From a virus, in the IMG/VR virus record IMGVR_UViG_3300036804_000090, positions 1 to 33,200 of that record: a stretch of DNA of 33,200 bases. The stretch is one strand, 5' to 3'. The position numbers and the translations under genes are program-made. Position 1 is the stretch's first letter. Each line of letters starts with the position of its first letter. Shown in pieces: positions 12,751 through 26,832 of the stretch. Under the pieces are notes generated by a model. It was not told the DNA's origin. It was given only the letters and a program-made list of their open reading frames with translations, and did not search any database.

Positions 12751-13752
12751 TTAGCTGGCGCCGGGGGGTCCTTGGGGTCCTGCGGGTCCTTGGGGTCCTT
12801 CAGGTCCTTGGGGTCCTTCAGGGCCCCTCTCGCCGACGCCTCCCTGAAAGGGTGCGGCGTCCGCGATCGTCGCGATAGCGAACGGCTTGGCGCCGCCCTC
12901 CGCTCGACGGGTGACGGGCTCGACGACGACGCACCCGAACCGGGCCCAGACCTTCAGCAGGGTCTGGTTGTCCTGGAACGCCGAGACGGCGATCGTCCCG
13001 TCGTCATTCGCCAGGACGCCGTCATTTGAGAACTGGTATCGGATGTCCTGCCGGACGCCGATCAGCAGGTAGCGCCAGGCGCCGGTAATAAAGTCGCCGG
13101 TCGCGTCGGCGCCGAACTGGCTGTATGAGATCGGCAGGCCGTAGAGGGTGTTTATCTGCCCGCCCTGGACCTGGCCGAGCCCGAGCAGGAACGCCCCGGA
13201 GCCGTCGCGAACGCCTCGCAGGGCGCCCTGGACGGCGACGTCGGCGGCGTGGCCGGTGACCTGGAGGCCCTGGCCCTCGACGGCTGACATCGCGTCGTTC
13301 ACGGTCGCGACGGCGTCACCCTCGGTCTCGACGTCGATCGCGTGAGCGGCGAGGCCGCCCACTGGGAAGGTTGCCGGGGCGTCGATCCCCCAGAACACGG
13401 TGTCGTCGAGCGCCAGCGCGATCGCCTCGGCGAGCTGAGGCCGGGCGTAATCCCAGAGCCGAAACTCGGAGTCCTCCAGCGTCGCGTCGGGGACGCTGAC
13501 GACGGCGGCGATCTCCTCGGCGGTGAGCTGCTCGTTTGAGAGCTTCAGGTCGGTGAATGGCTTCCGGCCGCCGGTGCTCACCCAGGCAGCGCGGGGGAAC
13601 GCCTTCGGGACCGGGAACTCGCTGATCCGCGTCCCCATCGGGACGCGGGTCCCGCGGGCGAGTGCCGCGGACTGCTGGGTCGCCTCGGCGATGATCTGAG
13701 CCGAGAACTGGGGCGGGATCTGACCGGATAGGTCGATCGGGGCGGGGGACAA
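12751..13752 (-). CDS. Major capsid protein, HK97 fold, with collagen-like tail
   Basis: 333 residues from a TTG start with GGAGG seven bases upstream. Residues 1-300 match the HK97-type capsid family: SEFPVPKAFPRAAWVS, EEIAAVVSVPDATLEDSE, then LAEAIALALDDTVFWG and a typical SAFQDNQTLLKVWARFGCVV end. Residues about 307-333 are nine consecutive Gly-X-Y triplets, mostly GPQ or GPE, as in collagen. The tail would be displayed many times per virion if it is exposed. A promoter candidate lies upstream, so capsid protein may be transcribed independently of the upstream head genes. Confidence 0.9.
   Translation of the reverse strand: MSPAPIDLSGQIPPQFSAQIIAEATQQSAALARGTRVPMGTRISEFPVPKAFPRAAWVSTGGRKPFTDLKLSNEQLTAEEIAAVVSVPDATLEDSEFRLWDYARPQLAEAIALALDDTVFWGIDAPATFPVGGLAAHAIDVETEGDAVATVNDAMSAVEGQGLQVTGHAADVAVQGALRGVRDGSGAFLLGLGQVQGGQINTLYGLPISYSQFGADATGDFITGAWRYLLIGVRQDIRYQFSNDGVLANDDGTIAVSAFQDNQTLLKVWARFGCVVVEPVTRRAEGGAKPFAIATIADAAPFQGGVGERGPEGPQGPEGPQGPAGPQGPPGAS
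12754..12834 (-). repeat. Collagen-like Gly-X-Y coding repeat
   Basis: Nine triplets coded by near-identical 9-bp units (GGACCCCAA-type) form the 3' end of the capsid gene. Such tandem units can gain or lose copies in frame. The stop follows directly after Gly-Ala-Ser. Confidence 0.85.
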
Positions 13753-13890: not shown

Positions 13891-13920
13891 AGCGTAGCGC
13901 CGCCCGCGGCGGGTCGTCAA
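13891..13920 (-). promoter_or_regulatory. Sigma-70-type promoter candidate for the capsid gene
   Basis: On the minus strand, TTGACG (13920-13915) and TACGCT (13896-13891) are separated by 18 bases. They stand about 140 bp before the capsid start, in the only sizeable gap within the head genes. The -35 overlaps the scaffold stop. Confidence 0.45.
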
Positions 13921-14537
13921 CTTCCCGAGATTGCGCCTCGCATCCAGGCGTTCCCGTCGGCGCCCGAGGCGCCGTTCTCGGAGACGCCCTTCCGGATCGT
14001 CTGACCGGCGCCGCCGGTGGCGGGGCCGAGCTTGGCGAACCCCTCGACGGCCTCGGTGATCGCGTCCTCGTCGACCTTCCCGTCCTCGGCGACGAACCGG
14101 GACATATCCCCGGCGAGCTTGACGACCTGGTCGACGTCGGAGACCTTCCCGGCCGCGGTCGAGCGGAACCTCGCCTCGGCGAGCGTGGCGCCGAGCTCGG
14201 TGAGCGCCGCGGCGCGGCCCTCGTCGCGGGCGGCGGCGATCGCCTGCTCGGACTCGGTCATCCCTTTACGCTCGGCGGCGTCGGCGCGCTTGCGTGCGGC
14301 GGCCGCCTCCCGGCGCTGGGCCGCCAGCGCCGCCTTCAGCTCGCGAACCTCCGGGGAGTCGCCTGAGCTCTCGCCCTGGCCCTCGCTCTCGCCCTGGCCT
14401 GAGCTCTCGCCCTGGCCGCCCTGCTGACCGGAGCTCTCGCTCTCGGTCGTCGAGGTCGTCCCGGCCTCGCCGGTGGCGCTCTCGCCGCTGGTCTCGGTGC
14501 CAGCTCCAGCCTCGCCCTGCCCGGTCTCGGTGGTCAT
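13917..14537 (-). CDS. Capsid scaffold protein
   Basis: 206 residues from an ATG overlapping the previous stop (ATGA) with an AGGAG-type Shine-Dalgarno. An acidic Gly/Ser/Glu low-complexity start (GQGESEGQGESSG) leads into a charged coiled coil (VRELKAALAAQRREAAAARK). The C-terminal half has AALTELGATLAEARFRSTAA and a DEDAITEAVEGFAKL helix, a common scaffold ending. Position just before the capsid gene is typical. It should direct shell assembly and leave before DNA entry. Confidence 0.85.
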   Translation of the reverse strand: MTTETGQGEAGAGTETSGESATGEAGTTSTTESESSGQQGGQGESSGQGESEGQGESSGDSPEVRELKAALAAQRREAAAARKRADAAERKGMTESEQAIAAARDEGRAAALTELGATLAEARFRSTAAGKVSDVDQVVKLAGDMSRFVAEDGKVDEDAITEAVEGFAKLGPATGGAGQTIRKGVSENGASGADGNAWMRGAISGS

Positions 14538-14785
14538 TCTGCGGTCTCCTCCTCGGGGTGAAAAGTCGCCAGCCATTGATCGAACTCCTCGCGGCGCTCG
14601 GGGTCAAGCTCGAAGGGTGCCTCGGCGGCGACCGGCTGGCGGTGATCGCCTCCCCAGACGATGATGTCCTCGGGGATGCCGAAGGGGAAGCTCCGACAGA
14701 CCGCCTGGCCGTCGGGCGTCGACTCGCCGGTCAGGTCGACCGCGCGAGCGCAGGCGTCGCAGAGGTTGGGGACGTGTGTCGTCAT
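14534..14785 (-). CDS. Small Cys-containing head-region protein
   Basis: 83 residues between MuF and scaffold, coupled by ATGA at both ends. LCDACARAVDL and a later VCRSF give three cysteines that could bind a metal. The C-terminus is acidic. Function unknown; possibly a head accessory protein. Confidence 0.6.
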   Translation of the reverse strand: MTTHVPNLCDACARAVDLTGESTPDGQAVCRSFPFGIPEDIIVWGGDHRQPVAAEAPFELDPERREEFDQWLATFHPEEETAE

Positions 14786-16041
14786 CGGGTGTAAAAGCCT
14801 GGGGGAGAGGTGCCGAGGTACCGAACTATGGCATCGCCGATAGCGGTCGCCATCGGCCGCGGCTCGGGCGCCAGGACGTATTCGGCCCAGGACTCGGCGA
14901 TCAGCTCCTCCCGGTTGGTCCCGGCGTACTGGCTGACCTGGCGGGCGGCGCTCGGGAACTGGTCGGTCTCGGGCTGTAGCGCCATATTGGCCTCGGCGGT
15001 CTCGCGGATGATCCCGCCGAGCTCCGCCTTCTGGCCCGGGTTCAGTTGGAAGTCGAGAAAGTGGCCGGTCTCGTGAGCGATGACGACCTTGGAGATCGTG
15101 TTCGATTGCGGCAGGCTCGGGTCGATCGTCGAGGGCCACCAGGAGATCGGCGAGCGGTCGGTGACGCGAAGCTGGGCGGCGAGGATGTCGAGCTTGGGCT
15201 GGGAGGTGCCGGGCCGGACGGTGATCGTGTTATCGCTCGGCCGGAACCATGCCAGCGCCCGGCGGCCGACCCGCCGGTCGGCCGGGTTGTTCGTCGGATC
15301 GGCGACCCTAATCTCGGTCAGTCGGTCGGTGATGTCTGAGCGGATCCCGCGCAGGCTTCGGCGCAGGGTGGCGCGGACGTCGGCCTCGTATGCGTCGCGG
15401 CGGGACTTCGGGATCTTCTCGAAGTTGATCGGGACCGCGTCGGCGCGACCTTCGCCCGGCGTCCGGCCGACGGGCGCGGCAGGCGTCGGCTGGCGGCCCT
15501 CGGCGGCGTCGCGGCCGCGGCCGATCGACCGGCGGCTCGTCGCATGGCCCGAGATCTCCGGCGACGGGGTGCAGCGGCAGTTGGCATGCGCGGCGAACCC
15601 GGCGCGGGCGGGGACGTATCCGCGGTCGGCGATCAGCTTGCAGAAGTCGCAGGCGTCGGGGCGGGTGATCCGGACCACCCGGCCGGTGAATCGCTCGTCG
15701 CCCTCGGCGACGGCGCCGGTGGCGAGGTTCGCGGCCCGGTAGGGCTCGGTCCCGGCGATCCGATTGAGCCACCCGAGCGCGGAGGTGGCGGCCTGCTCGC
15801 GCTGCCACCCGGCGCCCAGCCGGGCGAAGTAGACCGCGGGGACGGTGCCGGTTAGCGCCGCCATCGGACGCCCCGAGGCCGTCGAGCCGATCAGCCCGGC
15901 GGGCAGGACGGGGACGACGTCGTCAGCTCCAGCAGCGCCGAGCAGCCCGCGCAGCCAGCCGGAGGTCTCGACCAGCGCCGCGGCCTGGGCCGACGTCGTC
16001 CAGGTGGCGGCCGCGCCGCCGAGCGCCGCGAGGGTCTGCAC
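14782..16041 (-). CDS. MuF-type head protein fused to a zinc metallopeptidase
   Basis: 419 residues from GTG. The N-terminal part is a MuF/phage head morphogenesis domain with CDFCKLIADRGYVPA (about 131-145) and HANCRC (152-157). A Pro/Arg linker leads to a second domain with VVIAHETGHFLDF (HExxH at 323-327) and a downstream EELIAESWAEY that can supply the third, Glu ligand, as in gluzincins. It is probably packaged in the head, with the peptidase acting in maturation or in the host after injection (inference). The frame is open upstream to a CTG at 16140 that overlaps the portal stop (CTGA). The added 33 residues (LTGLYRDRLQALVASTQLRL onward) look like a genuine MuF N-terminus, so the real start may be this rare CTG. 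Confidence 0.82.
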   Translation of the reverse strand: MQTLAALGGAAATWTTSAQAAALVETSGWLRGLLGAAGADDVVPVLPAGLIGSTASGRPMAALTGTVPAVYFARLGAGWQREQAATSALGWLNRIAGTEPYRAANLATGAVAEGDERFTGRVVRITRPDACDFCKLIADRGYVPARAGFAAHANCRCTPSPEISGHATSRRSIGRGRDAAEGRQPTPAAPVGRTPGEGRADAVPINFEKIPKSRRDAYEADVRATLRRSLRGIRSDITDRLTEIRVADPTNNPADRRVGRRALAWFRPSDNTITVRPGTSQPKLDILAAQLRVTDRSPISWWPSTIDPSLPQSNTISKVVIAHETGHFLDFQLNPGQKAELGGIIRETAEANMALQPETDQFPSAARQVSQYAGTNREELIAESWAEYVLAPEPRPMATAIGDAIVRYLGTSPPGFYTR

Positions 16042-16136
16042 GGGGTTCTCGGGGTCAAACAGTTGACCCCAGGCGGTCGCGAGTCGGAGCTGAGTCGAGG
16101 CGACGAGCGCCTGAAGGCGGTCCCGGTAAAGGCCGG

Positions 16137-17558
16137 TCAGGTCGTCGGCGGCGGTGATGTCGTCCCGCCCCCGAGCAGTGCCGCATACGGATCAGTGGCG
16201 CCGAGCGCCGCGGCGGAGACGGCGGCGTCGGCCGCGGCCTCGGCGGCGGCGAGCTGCTCCCAGCGGGCGATCTCCTGCGGGCTGGCGCCCCAGCGCTCCC
16301 AGAGCACCTTGCGCGGAACGCCGAGCGTGCGCATCTTGACCAGCGCGTCGACGAGCTCGCCCTCCGAACGGGTCTCGAAGTCGCGCCAGATCGTCTCGCC
16401 CGAGACGTTGACGGCGCCGGGGTCGCCGACCATCGCCAGCCCGAGGCGCTGGACGCTCTCCCAGCCCTCGCCGAGGTGCGAGGCCCGGCGCCGGACCTTG
16501 GCGACCAGCCCGGCCTCGGCGGCCTTCAGCGCCTCCCCGGAGATGTTCACCATCCCGCCGAGCAGGTAGTGGGGCGGGGTCTGGGTGATCGCGGCGAGGT
16601 GCTGGACGTCAGCCTCGACGGAGTCCAGGTACCCCTTCAGCGTCGACTCTTGGATCACGCCGAAGCGGGCGTCGGGGTTCTCGGACGTCAGCAGCCGGTC
16701 AGCACCGACATTGAACGGCGCGATGTATTCGCCCTCGGGCCCGCGCTCGGCCTTGACGCCGGTGGCGGTGACCTGACGGAAGGCGCCGAAGTCTGAGGCG
16801 ACCAGCCGGTTATAGATCTCCAGATTGATCCGGTCCTGGATCGGGATCACGGAGTGCAGCTCTGAGCGCGGCGGGCCGACGGTCCGCGGCGCCGGTGCGA
16901 GCTCGACGACCGGGACGGTCCTCGTCGGGTTGGCCTCGACTGACTCGGGATCGCCGGAGGGCTCGCCGACGAACGTCAGCGCGCCAGAATCATCCGGCGC
17001 GGCGGCGAGCTCGCGCGTCCAGGTGACGACCTGGTCGGGGGTGATGAGCTGCTCGACGAGCATCGCGCCCTCAGCCACCCGCTTGTAAGCCGCGACGGTC
17101 CGGCGGTGCCCGTTCGGCGCCCGGTAAAGCAAGGTGATCTGGGAGGGGTGCTCCGGGATGATCTGTACGCCGGTCGGGTTGGCCTCCTCGGGCCAGACTG
17201 AGACGAACGTGTGACCGCAGACCAGCGCGTCGGTTTGGACCATCTCGCCGAGGGAGTCCATCGCCGAGGCCTGCCAGATCGTCCAGGCGAGGTCATCGCT
17301 GGAGCCGCCGAAGCGGAACCCGACGACGAGCATCCGCTCGGCGACGGCGTTTACGGTCAGCTCCGACCAGTTCGTGCGGCTGGCGGGGACGAGCTGGCGA
17401 AAGATGTCGCGCTGGTCGCCTGACAGCAGCCGCGAGGCGATCAGGCCGTCGTAATAGTGCTCGTAATGCCGGGCCCGGAGGATCTGGCGATCGAGGCGAC
17501 CGGCGCCCTCGGTGCGCCAGTCGGCGAGGTCGACGTCGAGGTAATCCAGGACCGCCAT
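16137..17558 (-). CDS. Portal protein (SPP1 gp6-like)
   Basis: 473 residues forming the DNA gate ring of the head. Family marks: an early HYEHYYDGL segment, NWSELTVNAVAERM, a central IPIQDRINLEIYNRL, and TPPHYLLGGMVNISGEALKA followed by a long helical stem. Ala/Pro-rich at the C-terminus. Coupled to the large terminase by TGATG and followed by the MuF gene, the standard order. Confidence 0.93.
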   Translation of the reverse strand: MAVLDYLDVDLADWRTEGAGRLDRQILRARHYEHYYDGLIASRLLSGDQRDIFRQLVPASRTNWSELTVNAVAERMLVVGFRFGGSSDDLAWTIWQASAMDSLGEMVQTDALVCGHTFVSVWPEEANPTGVQIIPEHPSQITLLYRAPNGHRRTVAAYKRVAEGAMLVEQLITPDQVVTWTRELAAAPDDSGALTFVGEPSGDPESVEANPTRTVPVVELAPAPRTVGPPRSELHSVIPIQDRINLEIYNRLVASDFGAFRQVTATGVKAERGPEGEYIAPFNVGADRLLTSENPDARFGVIQESTLKGYLDSVEADVQHLAAITQTPPHYLLGGMVNISGEALKAAEAGLVAKVRRRASHLGEGWESVQRLGLAMVGDPGAVNVSGETIWRDFETRSEGELVDALVKMRTLGVPRKVLWERWGASPQEIARWEQLAAAEAAADAAVSAAALGATDPYAALLGGGTTSPPPTT

Positions 17559-25484: not shown

Positions 25485-26564
25485 TTAGCCCTGCGCGCCG
25501 GAAGATACTCCCGCGAGCAGTCGATAGGCGACATCAGCCCAATCGCGGGTCAGGTGCCCGTAGCGACGGTCGATCATCTCGATCGAGCATCCCATCAGCC
25601 GGGCGAGCATGAACGGCGCGATCCCAGCGGCGAGCGCGTTGCTGGCGAACGTGTGGCGCAGGTGATACGGGCCGCGGACCATGACCCCGGCCGCTTCGAG
25701 CGCCGGGGTCCAGGTCCGGTTGCGCCAGTTGTTCAGCAGTAGGTAGCCGCCACGGTGAGCAGGGAACAGCGCCCGAGAGTCGATCCTGGGCGGCAGGTCG
25801 TCAAGCGCCGCCAGCGCCCGAGGTGTCAGCGGAACCGACCGCAGGGAGCGCGCGTTCTTCGGATACGGGGTCAGGACCCCCTCGCTGAAGCGGCGGACGA
25901 CCTGGAGGGTCGGGGTTCCGTTGCGGTCGACGTCGGCGCGGTGCGACGCGGTCCATTCATTCGTCCGCAGGCCGGTCTCGGCGCCGACGATGACGACCGC
26001 GGCGTCCCGCGGGTTCCCGCCGCCCAGCTCGGCCAGGATCGCGTCGAGCTCGTCGGAGTCAAACGGATCGCACTCCTCGCCGCGCGGCTGAGGGTTGGGC
26101 CCGACGTCGAGCGCGGGGTTCCGGTCGATGTAGCGCCAGCGCTTCGCGGCGGCGAGGACCTGGCGGAGCGCCCGAGTCCGTTTGTGGCGCTGGTCCTCGC
26201 TCCAGGAGCGCTGAGCGCGCCAGGCGGCGATGTCATCGGCGGCGTTCTCTAACTCGGCCATCGTCCAGGTTCCGAACTGGGCCCGGGCTGGTATCAGCCA
26301 GTTCCGGACGGTCGCGACGGTCCGGGCGGTCTGGGTCGGCCCCCAGCGGGCGTCGAGGTAGAGGTCGCAGAACTCGTCGAAGGTGATCCGGGCGCTGGGG
26401 CCGTTGCGCTCCAGCCGGGGCAGGACCTCTTTTCGGAACCATCGGCGGGCCTCGGTCTCATTCTTGAAGCCGGGCTGGTGGGGCCGGTCGCTGCCCTCCC
26501 GCCAGCGGATCCCGACGAGGCCGTCGGAGGTCCGATACGTCGACCCGGTTTGTTCTCGGGGCAT
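25485..26564 (-). CDS. int: Tyrosine integrase
   Basis: 359 residues from ATG at 26564, chosen because GAGGAG lies seven bases before it; an in-frame ATG at 26579 is possible. N-terminal arm-binding and SAM-like domains (FDEFCDLYLDARWGPTQTAR) precede the catalytic domain: Arg200 in GAETGLRTNEW, a Lys in KNARSLRSVPL, the box YHLRHTFASNALAAGI (Arg303) and the nucleophile Tyr335 in DRRYGHL. The usual His of the HxxR box is Tyr and the GH pair is GC, variants common in this subgroup. It should recombine attP with a tRNA-Gly gene. attP lies about 2.4 kb downstream, with several genes in between. Confidence 0.93.
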   Translation of the reverse strand: MPREQTGSTYRTSDGLVGIRWREGSDRPHQPGFKNETEARRWFRKEVLPRLERNGPSARITFDEFCDLYLDARWGPTQTARTVATVRNWLIPARAQFGTWTMAELENAADDIAAWRAQRSWSEDQRHKRTRALRQVLAAAKRWRYIDRNPALDVGPNPQPRGEECDPFDSDELDAILAELGGGNPRDAAVVIVGAETGLRTNEWTASHRADVDRNGTPTLQVVRRFSEGVLTPYPKNARSLRSVPLTPRALAALDDLPPRIDSRALFPAHRGGYLLLNNWRNRTWTPALEAAGVMVRGPYHLRHTFASNALAAGIAPFMLARLMGCSIEMIDRRYGHLTRDWADVAYRLLAGVSSGAQG

Positions 26565-26568
26565 GGCG

Positions 26569-26832
26569 CTACTCCTCATCTTCAGGGTTACTTGACCTGA
26601 CAGACGATAGCCTCCCAGCCTGGGCGGCGCCTATCGGGTTGCTTGACACTCCTCGTCTGGGCGTCGCCCTCTCCTCCAGCCAGCGGTCGAGCTCCTCGGG
26701 CCGGAACCGAAGCGCTCCGCTCGGGAGCTTGAACGCCGGGATCTTGCCCTGACGGGCCCAGACCAGAACGGTCTCGGGGACGACGCCGAGCTGGTCGGCG
26801 ACGGCGCGGGTTGTGAGGAGCTCGCCGGTCAC
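26569..26832 (-). CDS. xis: Excisionase-like HTH protein
   Basis: 87 residues, GTG start. LLTTRAVADQLGVVPETVLV, then WARQGKIPAFKLPSGALRFR and EELDRWL, is a clear MerR/excisionase HTH (HTH_17). It directly precedes the integrase, whose Shine-Dalgarno is embedded near its end. It probably sets the direction of recombination. The C-terminal codons carry a copy of the start-associated sequence and two GGTTRCTTGACM elements. Confidence 0.82.
   Translation of the reverse strand: MTGELLTTRAVADQLGVVPETVLVWARQGKIPAFKLPSGALRFRPEELDRWLEERATPRRGVSSNPIGAAQAGRLSSVRSSNPEDEE
26586..26597 (+). repeat. GGTTRCTTGACM element, copy 2
   Basis: GGTTACTTGACC, inside the excisionase gene just upstream of the integrase start. 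See the copies at 22829 and 26637. Confidence 0.45.
26637..26658. repeat. GGTTRCTTGACM copy 3 overlapping an antisense start-associated sequence
   Basis: GGTTGCTTGACA (26637-26648, plus) overlaps TGACACTCCTCGTCT (26644-26658), which on the minus strand is AGACGAGGAGTGTCA, a 15-bp match to the start-associated sequences at 20837, 21208 and 21691. Here it lies inside the excisionase coding region and has no start codon just after it. Confidence 0.5.

What the first reader, a model, noticed from the sequence alone, without database searches (positions are those of the whole stretch)
14782..16140. MuF head protein fused to an HExxH metallopeptidase, possibly with a CTG start
MuF proteins can be carried in the virion, and MuF-linked C-terminal domains include toxins and enzymes. 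This one has VVIAHETGHFLDF and a downstream Glu-rich EELIAESWAEY, enough for a gluzincin site. It may be a head maturation protease (no other capsid protease is visible) or an injected effector. The frame continues to a CTG overlapping the portal stop, and the added 33 residues look like a MuF N-terminus with no ATG, GTG or TTG available.
Basis: partly seen in the sequence, partly recalled or inferred. Interest (0 to 1): 0.66.

Follow-up and report, generated by a model that had tools for sequence, protein, structure and literature searches.

The report
Virion metalloprotease paired with small protein
A bacterial virus appears to carry a zinc-dependent protein-cutting enzyme on one of its head proteins, probably to inject it into the host, and the gene is followed by a tiny metal-binding-type protein that accompanies such enzymes in very different viruses, which suggests an unrecognised two-gene module.

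Summary
The minus-strand frame 16140-14782 encodes a MuF-type head protein joined to a HExxH metallopeptidase; no ATG, GTG or TTG lies upstream of GTG 16041, and a CTG overlaps the portal stop (CTGA). The last ~95 residues match a domain found in 24 viral contigs on several different carriers. A relative's domain folds confidently (pLDDT 94) and aligns best to M34 gluzincins (lethal factor/PPEP fold, Z 11.4); the window's own model agrees but is weaker. A head-maturation role is unlikely: 4 of 7 related loci examined carry a separate head protease. MuF-metallopeptidase fusions are already described (Jamet 2017). Outside the given coordinates I found a companion: the 83-aa ORF at 14785-14534 belongs to a Cys3-His family that follows 21 of 23 related zincin genes. 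Searched independently, the gene upstream of that family has HExxH in 69 of 80 loci (control ORFs 2 of 116), and JAMM-type motifs occur in 6 more. Best explanation: an injected protease effector plus a dedicated small partner (inhibitor or loading factor). The CTG start is plausible, not shown. No function was tested experimentally.

The parts
14782..16140 (-). MuF-zincin gene, 452 aa if started at CTG 16140 (419 aa from GTG 16041)
16138..16140 (-). candidate CTG start, overlapping the portal stop as CTGA
   Evidence: not proven
16039..16041 (-). first canonical start (GTG) in the frame
15541..16113 (-). MuF-type (VG15 / phrog_1522) part, about residues 10-200
14785..15459 (-). C-terminal zincin domain as aligned and modelled, residues 228-452; clear homology in about residues 347-440
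15061..15075 (-). HETGH (HExxH), residues 356-360
14926..14928 (-). Tyr 405, invariant in 21 of 21 aligned rows and not part of the retrieval pattern
14893..14907 (-). Glu 412 to Glu 416 (ELIAE): both Glu invariant in 21 of 21 rows; candidate third zinc ligand
   Evidence: ligand role inferred
14534..14785 (-). orf83: small Cys3-His companion (C9, C12, C30, H48; FPFGIPEDI), ATGA overlap with the MuF-zincin stop
16137..17558 (-). portal protein
13917..14576 (-). scaffold protein (phrog_4708)
12751..13752 (-). major capsid protein
25485..26579 (-). integrase (phrog_1), supports a temperate phage

Best explanation
The gene makes a virion-borne protease effector. The MuF domain docks the protein at the portal or inside the head (inferred from MuF biology). 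During DNA ejection the C-terminal zincin, an M34-like zinc endopeptidase with HExxH, a distal Glu and a Tyr, enters the host cell and cleaves one or a few host proteins to favour infection or lysogeny (target unknown; inferred). The gene directly downstream, orf83, encodes a small Cys3-His protein made by coupled translation; it binds the effector in the producing cell as a safety catch or loading factor until packaging (pairing shown; role inferred). Shown here: fusion, homology, fold of a relative, conserved active-site residues, swapping of C-terminal domains, conserved gene pairing. Not shown: presence in virions, ejection, protease activity, target, function of orf83.
For: MuF part: VG15 8e-8, phrog_1522 7.6e-10. 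Zincin family: 24 viral loci, 12 invariant columns in 21 rows, profile match to the window. Fold: a relative's model with pLDDT 94.3 aligns to M34 peptidases at Z up to 11.4, against 4.4 for the best other metallopeptidase family apart from 4l7a at 8.2; the window model gives the same families at Z 7.8. The same MuF type carries other enzymes: ADP-ribosyltransferase in four records and CdiA_C. The same zincin sits on different carriers, also a portal protein. Separate head proteases in 4 of 7 loci examined and, by annotation, in lotta8-2. Companion: 21 of 23 zincin loci, 69 of 80 the other way round, controls 2 of 116. Temperate markers. Precedent: 20% of 191 MuF toxins have a metallopeptidase domain, and 89.4% are followed by an ORF under 150 aa against 25.5% of 952 short MuF genes (PMC5576092). 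A MuF protein of phage 80alpha is described as an ejection protein (PMC12323379 passage).
Against: No virion or activity data. The window's own zincin model is of middling confidence (pLDDT 67) and Z 7.8 is within the range of chance; Foldseek alone gave no significant match. With both retrieval motifs masked the homology is not significant. The small family also follows JAMM-type and two ART-like genes, which a fold-specific inhibitor would not. No near relative of this phage was found in viral contigs.
Confidence: 0.5

Rival explanations
1. Processing protease: the zincin cuts its own polypeptide or a neighbouring virion protein before or after packaging, as proposed for metallopeptidase domains of polyvalent proteins, and orf83 regulates that cut.
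For: PMC5512222 passages propose autoprocessing for such domains, e.g. P1 DdrB. A linker of about 30 residues rich in Pro, Gly and Arg lies between the MuF and zincin parts. In relatives the zincin is C-terminal: the last HExxH lies within 150 residues of the C-terminus in 63 of 69.
Against: A C-terminal position fits an effector better than a releasing peptidase (argument of PMC3482391, passage). One protein with one enzyme leaves little to release.
Confidence: 0.2
2. Head maturation protease: the zincin cleaves scaffold or capsid protein during assembly.
For: No other head protease was seen among the 16 window proteins scanned. PHROG and SEA-PHAGES-style labels call MuF-type genes 'head maturation protease'. 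A MuF-protease fusion is annotated in Microbacterium cluster EG phages (PMC7302621 passages).
Against: Separate head maturation proteases lie beside the MuF-zincin gene in L020, L021, L023 and L030, and one is annotated in lotta8-2. P318, Ponzi and Success, related by portal, have scaffold and capsid genes but no annotated MuF or protease gene. The eight MuF-type proteins labelled so that I translated lack HExxH; the cluster EG fusion that I checked (SallyK gp24) lacks HExxH too.
Confidence: 0.1
3. orf83 is not a partner of the enzyme but a generic small head or packaging gene that happens to lie after MuF or portal genes.
For: It also follows JAMM-type and ART-like genes. The pair lies in a late head operon here.
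Against: Eleven MuF loci without this zincin (L002, L003, L005, L006, L008, L011, L012, L014, L015, L045, L046) lack the motif. In phage Jenst the small gene lies near a zincin gene among DNA-metabolism genes. HExxH occurs in 69 of 80 adjacent genes against 2 of 116 other genes.
Confidence: 0.2
4. Translation begins at GTG 16041 (or at ATG/GTG hidden by a sequence error at 16140), not at a CTG.
For: The 33 residues alone align to four relatives no better than shuffles (684, 232, 276 and 319 of 1000 reach the score). A five-sequence MuF profile gains nothing from them (55.1 against 55.6 bits). I see no Shine-Dalgarno-like stretch before the CTG (sequence). The record is a virus record from IMG/VR without a second copy found.
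Against: The codons after the CTG look coding: log-odds +6.8, reached by 1.8% of 7,940 non-coding stretches. The phrog_1522 match begins at residue 10 and the pairwise alignment with Karkharias gp4 at residue 2. TerL/portal and MuF/orf83 also overlap at their stops, and Nanodon's portal and next gene overlap by 4 bases.
Confidence: 0.45

Closest known systems
MuF polymorphic toxins of temperate phages (Jamet et al. 2017, PMC5576092)
   Same: MuF gene directly after the portal gene, C-terminal enzyme domain, small ORF downstream, temperate phage; 20% of their 191 MuF toxins have a metallopeptidase domain.
   Different: VG15-type MuF of an actinobacterial-type phage; one conserved small companion family across many carriers; the pair also in a phage described as virulent (lotta8). 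Their supplementary domain tables could not be read.
phrog_324 'head morphogenesis'
   Same: Its C-terminal half is this zincin family; it also hits the window (E=0.0019).
   Different: Its N-terminal half is another MuF type; the label names no enzyme.
M34 peptidase fold (lethal factor catalytic domain, Pro-Pro endopeptidases)
   Same: Fold of a modelled relative (Z 11.4 and 7.8); HExxH, distal Glu and a Tyr conserved.
   Different: Below Pfam ATLF's cut-off in all 18 relatives (5 weak hits, best E=0.0049); no delivery domain like theirs; different carrier.
Metallopeptidase domains of polyvalent proteins (PMC5512222)
   Same: Zincin domains on virion-associated proteins of phages, likely delivered to the host.
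   Different: Two-domain MuF fusion, not a giant multi-enzyme protein; small companion gene.
MuF-ADP-ribosyltransferase fusions (M. abscessus prophages; VIP2 fusions in Microbacterium phages, PMC7302621)
   Same: Related MuF part with a C-terminal enzyme.
   Different: Another enzyme; no small companion motif in the one such locus held (L046).

Membership tests
MuF polymorphic toxin (Jamet 2017) | MuF-type domain encoded directly downstream of the portal gene | tested here: met
   VG15 8e-8, phrog_1522 7.6e-10, gene abuts portal
MuF polymorphic toxin (Jamet 2017) | C-terminal enzymatic domain that is exchanged among carriers | tested here: met
   zincin here; ART or CdiA_C on related MuF parts; zincin on other carriers
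MuF polymorphic toxin (Jamet 2017) | Temperate phage | tested here: met
   integrase phrog_1 and HTH_3 protein in the window
MuF polymorphic toxin (Jamet 2017) | Small ORF (<150 aa) directly downstream | tested here: met
   orf83, ATGA overlap
MuF polymorphic toxin (Jamet 2017) | Toxic to bacteria, neutralised by the small ORF's product | not testable with these tools
   needs expression assays
M34 peptidase | HExxH, distal Glu and Tyr | tested here: met
   all invariant in 21 of 21 rows; equivalence of Tyr and Glu to M34 residues is inferred
M34 peptidase | M34 fold | tested here: inconclusive
   relative L023 Z 11.4; window model Z 7.8 at pLDDT 67; Foldseek E above 0.1 for both
M34 peptidase | Sequence match to Pfam ATLF above its cut-off | tested here: not met
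   window: no ATLF hit; 5 of 18 relatives weakly, best E=0.0049
Head maturation protease | Sole head protease of the phages that carry it | tested here: not met
   separate head protease in 4 of 7 loci examined
Head maturation protease | Cleaves capsid or scaffold during assembly | not testable with these tools
   needs a mutant phage
Cognate immunity protein (orf83) | Encoded directly downstream of and coupled to the toxin gene | tested here: met
   window ATGA; 21 of 23 loci at -11 to +5, 14 of them at -4
Cognate immunity protein (orf83) | Specific to one toxin fold | tested here: not met
   same small family after zincins and JAMM-type genes, perhaps also ART-like ones
Cognate immunity protein (orf83) | Neutralises the effector | not testable with these tools
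   needs co-expression and binding assays

The most novel reading that the evidence does not exclude
Phages use a general two-gene module for virion-borne metalloprotease effectors: an enzyme tail (zincin or JAMM type) on a portal-proximal protein, plus one shared small Cys3-His partner that acts as a fold-independent safety catch, metal chaperone or loading adaptor. One conserved partner serving unrelated peptidase folds would differ from the one-toxin-one-immunity rule of polymorphic toxins.
Probability: 0.35. Interest if true: 0.75.

Novelty: new variant of a known kind. Interest (0 to 1): 0.55.

Why it matters
MuF-linked enzymes are widely annotated, but how a phage loads and tames them is open. 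A small, strongly conserved partner gene that predicts a metallopeptidase gene next door gives a direct handle: it can be deleted, co-expressed or pulled down in cultured phages (Flavobacterium phage lotta8-2, Brevibacillus phage Jenst). It also warns that the label 'head maturation protease' on MuF-type genes can hide other functions.

Tried and rejected
Head maturation protease was considered and set aside (see rivals). Searches that led nowhere: NCBIfam, PDB sequence search with the domain and with A1 (dynein light chains at E 0.05-0.06, ODcase at 0.28-0.61, taken as chance, and one lethal factor chain at E 0.42), PADLOC, tblastn of the C-terminal half in phages and plasmids (best E 0.2 and 0.1), single-protein scans of viral contigs with the C-terminal half, portal and capsid proteins (none; the full-length scan gave L002 only), a shorter-gap DNA pattern (none), tblastn of orf83 in phages (none; two hits at E 7), tblastn of another small protein (none), a paper search on CTG starts (none). 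The genome scan found three gammaproteobacterial proteins with a HESGH...AExWAHY layout, not MuF proteins as far as I read them; dropped. An iterated zincin profile matched 70 of 80 small-protein loci; its matched region often lay outside the C-terminal domain, so I counted the motif itself instead. A family that is absent from the fold lists is not excluded, and I drew nothing from such absence.

Near-copies remain in it (73 after removal at 80% identity, 62 of them with HExxH upstream). Four of the 69 upstream genes end more than 150 bases from the small-protein motif. In the zincin-first set 24 loci were found; L024 is truncated; the two misses (L029, L035) share the same end sequence. Alignment A1 holds 20 of the 24 relatives and A3 18 of 24, near-copies and a short fragment left out.

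Papers: PMC5576092 sections 7 and 13 and passages; PMC5512222, PMC3482391, PMC7302621, PMC8092301, PMC12323379, PMC7077304, PMC10720488 and PMC4909266 passages only; all others search listings only. The names JAMM and ART for motifs, and RelA/SpoT-like for part of L029, are recalled, not from a family search.
Full report
1. What is there. The window is a 33,200-base IMG/VR virus record of 70.7% G+C. The structural genes run on the minus strand: terminase large subunit, portal, the finding, a small ORF, scaffold, HK97-type capsid protein, tail tube, tape measure. An integrase and an HTH_3 protein suggest a temperate phage. The best portal relatives are in phages of Thermobifida, Streptomyces and Arthrobacter at about 32-37% identity, so the host is probably an actinobacterium (inference).

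2. The open frame. ORF 14782-16041 has 419 residues from a GTG. The frame stays open to 16191 and holds no ATG, GTG or TTG upstream of that GTG. CTG at 16140 overlaps the portal stop as CTGA. The codons after it score as coding: log-odds +6.8, a value reached by 1.8% of 7,940 non-coding stretches; 11.5% of 1,588 coding stretches score no higher. The phrog_1522 match begins at residue 10. Against this, the 33 residues alone are not more similar to four relatives than shuffles are, and a MuF profile gains nothing from them. I put the CTG start at about even odds.

3. The MuF part. Pfam VG15 E=8e-8 and phrog_1522 E=7.6e-10. In all 47 phage records found by tblastn the hit lies in the MuF part only. 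The MuF-type proteins that I translated have 203-235 residues (Muddy, Kamaru, Demsculpinboyz, JacoRen57) or 269-399 (Samy, Nesbitt, Nanodon, Karkharias), and none of these eight has HExxH. The label 'capsid maturation protease' on such genes therefore does not point to a zincin. Four of the 47 hits are annotated as fusions with an ADP-ribosyltransferase domain, which a PHROG match bears out for the one fetched. A viral contig (L002) joins VG15 to CdiA_C (2e-10). The slot behind this MuF domain is thus occupied by different enzymes.

4. The C-terminal domain. A DNA pattern taken from the two motifs found 24 viral loci; all 24 encode the motifs in frame. In 20 relatives plus the window 12 columns are invariant, among them S403, Y405 and E420, which the pattern did not ask for, and P427-R428 holds in every row that reaches it. 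A family profile gives the window E=5.2e-16 (1,000 sequences), 9.7e-12 with HExxH masked, 0.033 for the tail after the second motif, and 1.8 with both motifs masked. Profile comparison with 18 relatives gives 98.5% probability over 97 columns. The family corresponds to the C-terminal part of phrog_324, which also hits the window independently (E=0.0019). Carriers differ: several MuF types, and in L029 a portal protein (Phage_portal_3). Giant proteins on two Streptomyces anthocyanicus plasmids and Gordonia phage DalanDe gp21 have similar HExGH...AE layouts.

5. Fold. The window domain modelled with A1 gives pLDDT 67 overall and about 90 around HExxH; its best second-look alignments are M34 peptidases (Z 7.8, rmsd 3.7, 133 residues), a middling value. 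The relative L023, modelled with 23 rows, reaches pLDDT 94.3 and aligns to lethal factor catalytic domains (Z up to 11.4, rmsd 3.9, 179 residues), to the zinc-binding peptidase 4l7a (8.2) and to PPEPs (7.8); the next other zincin, neprilysin, has Z 4.4. Foldseek alone gave no significant match for either model, and Pfam ATLF stays under its cut-off. I call it an M34-like gluzincin, not a member of M34. PPEP-1 entries named E143A/Y178F suggest that a Tyr matters there; equating it with Y405 is inference.

6. Probably not a head protease. I chose ORFs from seven zincin loci. L030 (phrog_94, 1.1e-30), L020 (phrog_976, 5.9e-7), L021 and L023 (phrog_80, 2.5e-38 and 1.3e-35) carry a separate head maturation protease; L029, L033 and L039 gave none in the ORFs chosen. 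The cultured Flavobacterium phage lotta8-2 has a MuF-zincin (gp028) and an annotated PF00574 protease (gp034). P318, Ponzi and Success, related by portal, have no annotated MuF or protease gene.

7. The companion. The ORF that overlaps the MuF-zincin stop (ATGA, 14785-14534, 83 aa) has C9, C12, C30, H48 and FPFGIPEDI. In the zincin loci a small ORF of this type starts at -11 to +5 of the stop in 21 of 23 untruncated loci, 14 of them at -4. Searching viral contigs with the small protein's motif alone gave 80 loci (the scan stopped at its limit). The gene next upstream has HExxH in 69 of 80, against 2 of 116 other upstream ORFs of 250 residues or more in the same loci and 2.1% of shuffled sequences. 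After removal of near-copies it is 62 of 73. In 65 of the 69 the gene ends within 150 bases of the motif. With the unbroadened zincin profile alone, 39 of 80 pass. The 11 loci without HExxH: one HExxxH (L049), six with a JAMM-type HxHP...SxxD motif (L052, L053, L080, L088, L090, L118; 0 of 116 controls), L069 JAMM-like by eye, L078 and L100 ART-like by eye, L056 unclear. C9, C12, C30, I37, P38 and H48 are invariant in 102 of 102 aligned small proteins, the window's included; C30, I37 and P38 were in the search motif of the 80, C9, C12 and H48 were not; for the 21 zincin-first rows my filter asked for the three Cys and for IP, not for the His. Six of eight small proteins match phrog_33375, 'unknown function', at E up to 0.0073; the window's and L028's do not. 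Eleven MuF loci without this zincin lack the motif. Phage Jenst has a zincin (gp116, annotated as low-copy virion protein) and the small protein (gp114) with one gene between.

8. Mechanism. Jamet 2017 proposed that MuF enzymes are delivered with the DNA, that peptidases may be mildly toxic and steer the lysis-lysogeny decision, and that small downstream ORFs are immunity genes. The effector part fits here. The immunity part fits only partly: one conserved small family serves zincins and JAMM-type enzymes, which a fold-specific inhibitor would not. A loading adaptor, metal chaperone or general safety catch is as likely. The study that isolated lotta8 counts its phages, one induced phage apart, as virulent (PMC7077304, abstract and passages), so the pair is not confined to temperate phages.

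9. Novelty. The fusion is known in kind. The shared companion was not found in print in my searches (and the passages read), which cover open-licence full texts only; the supplementary tables of Jamet 2017 could not be read.

Noticed in passing
L047-L126: The small Cys3-His gene also follows genes with a JAMM-type HxHP...SxxD motif (six by pattern, one by eye) and two ART-like genes.
   Followed up: partly
L002:3716-4675: Viral contig gene joining a VG15-type MuF part to a CdiA_C toxin domain.
   Followed up: partly
L029:7441-11967: Portal protein continued by a region that looks RelA/SpoT-like (by eye) and then by the zincin domain, in one 1,509-aa frame.
   Followed up: partly
L040 and L041, from about position 2210: Giant proteins on Streptomyces anthocyanicus plasmids contain a HELGH...AEFIAET zincin-like stretch.
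   Followed up: no
12751-12850: The capsid protein ends in a collagen-like GPEGPQGPEGPQG tail (Pfam Collagen, E=0.0025, under its cut-off).
   Followed up: no
L003, L005, L006, L008: Short MuF proteins of mycobacteriophages and Gordonia phages are annotated as capsid or head maturation protease although they lack HExxH; no protease motif was otherwise sought.
   Followed up: partly
L167:3118-4701 (Brevibacillus phage Jenst): A zincin-bearing 'low copy number virion structural protein' and the small partner lie among DNA-metabolism genes, away from recognised head genes.
   Followed up: no
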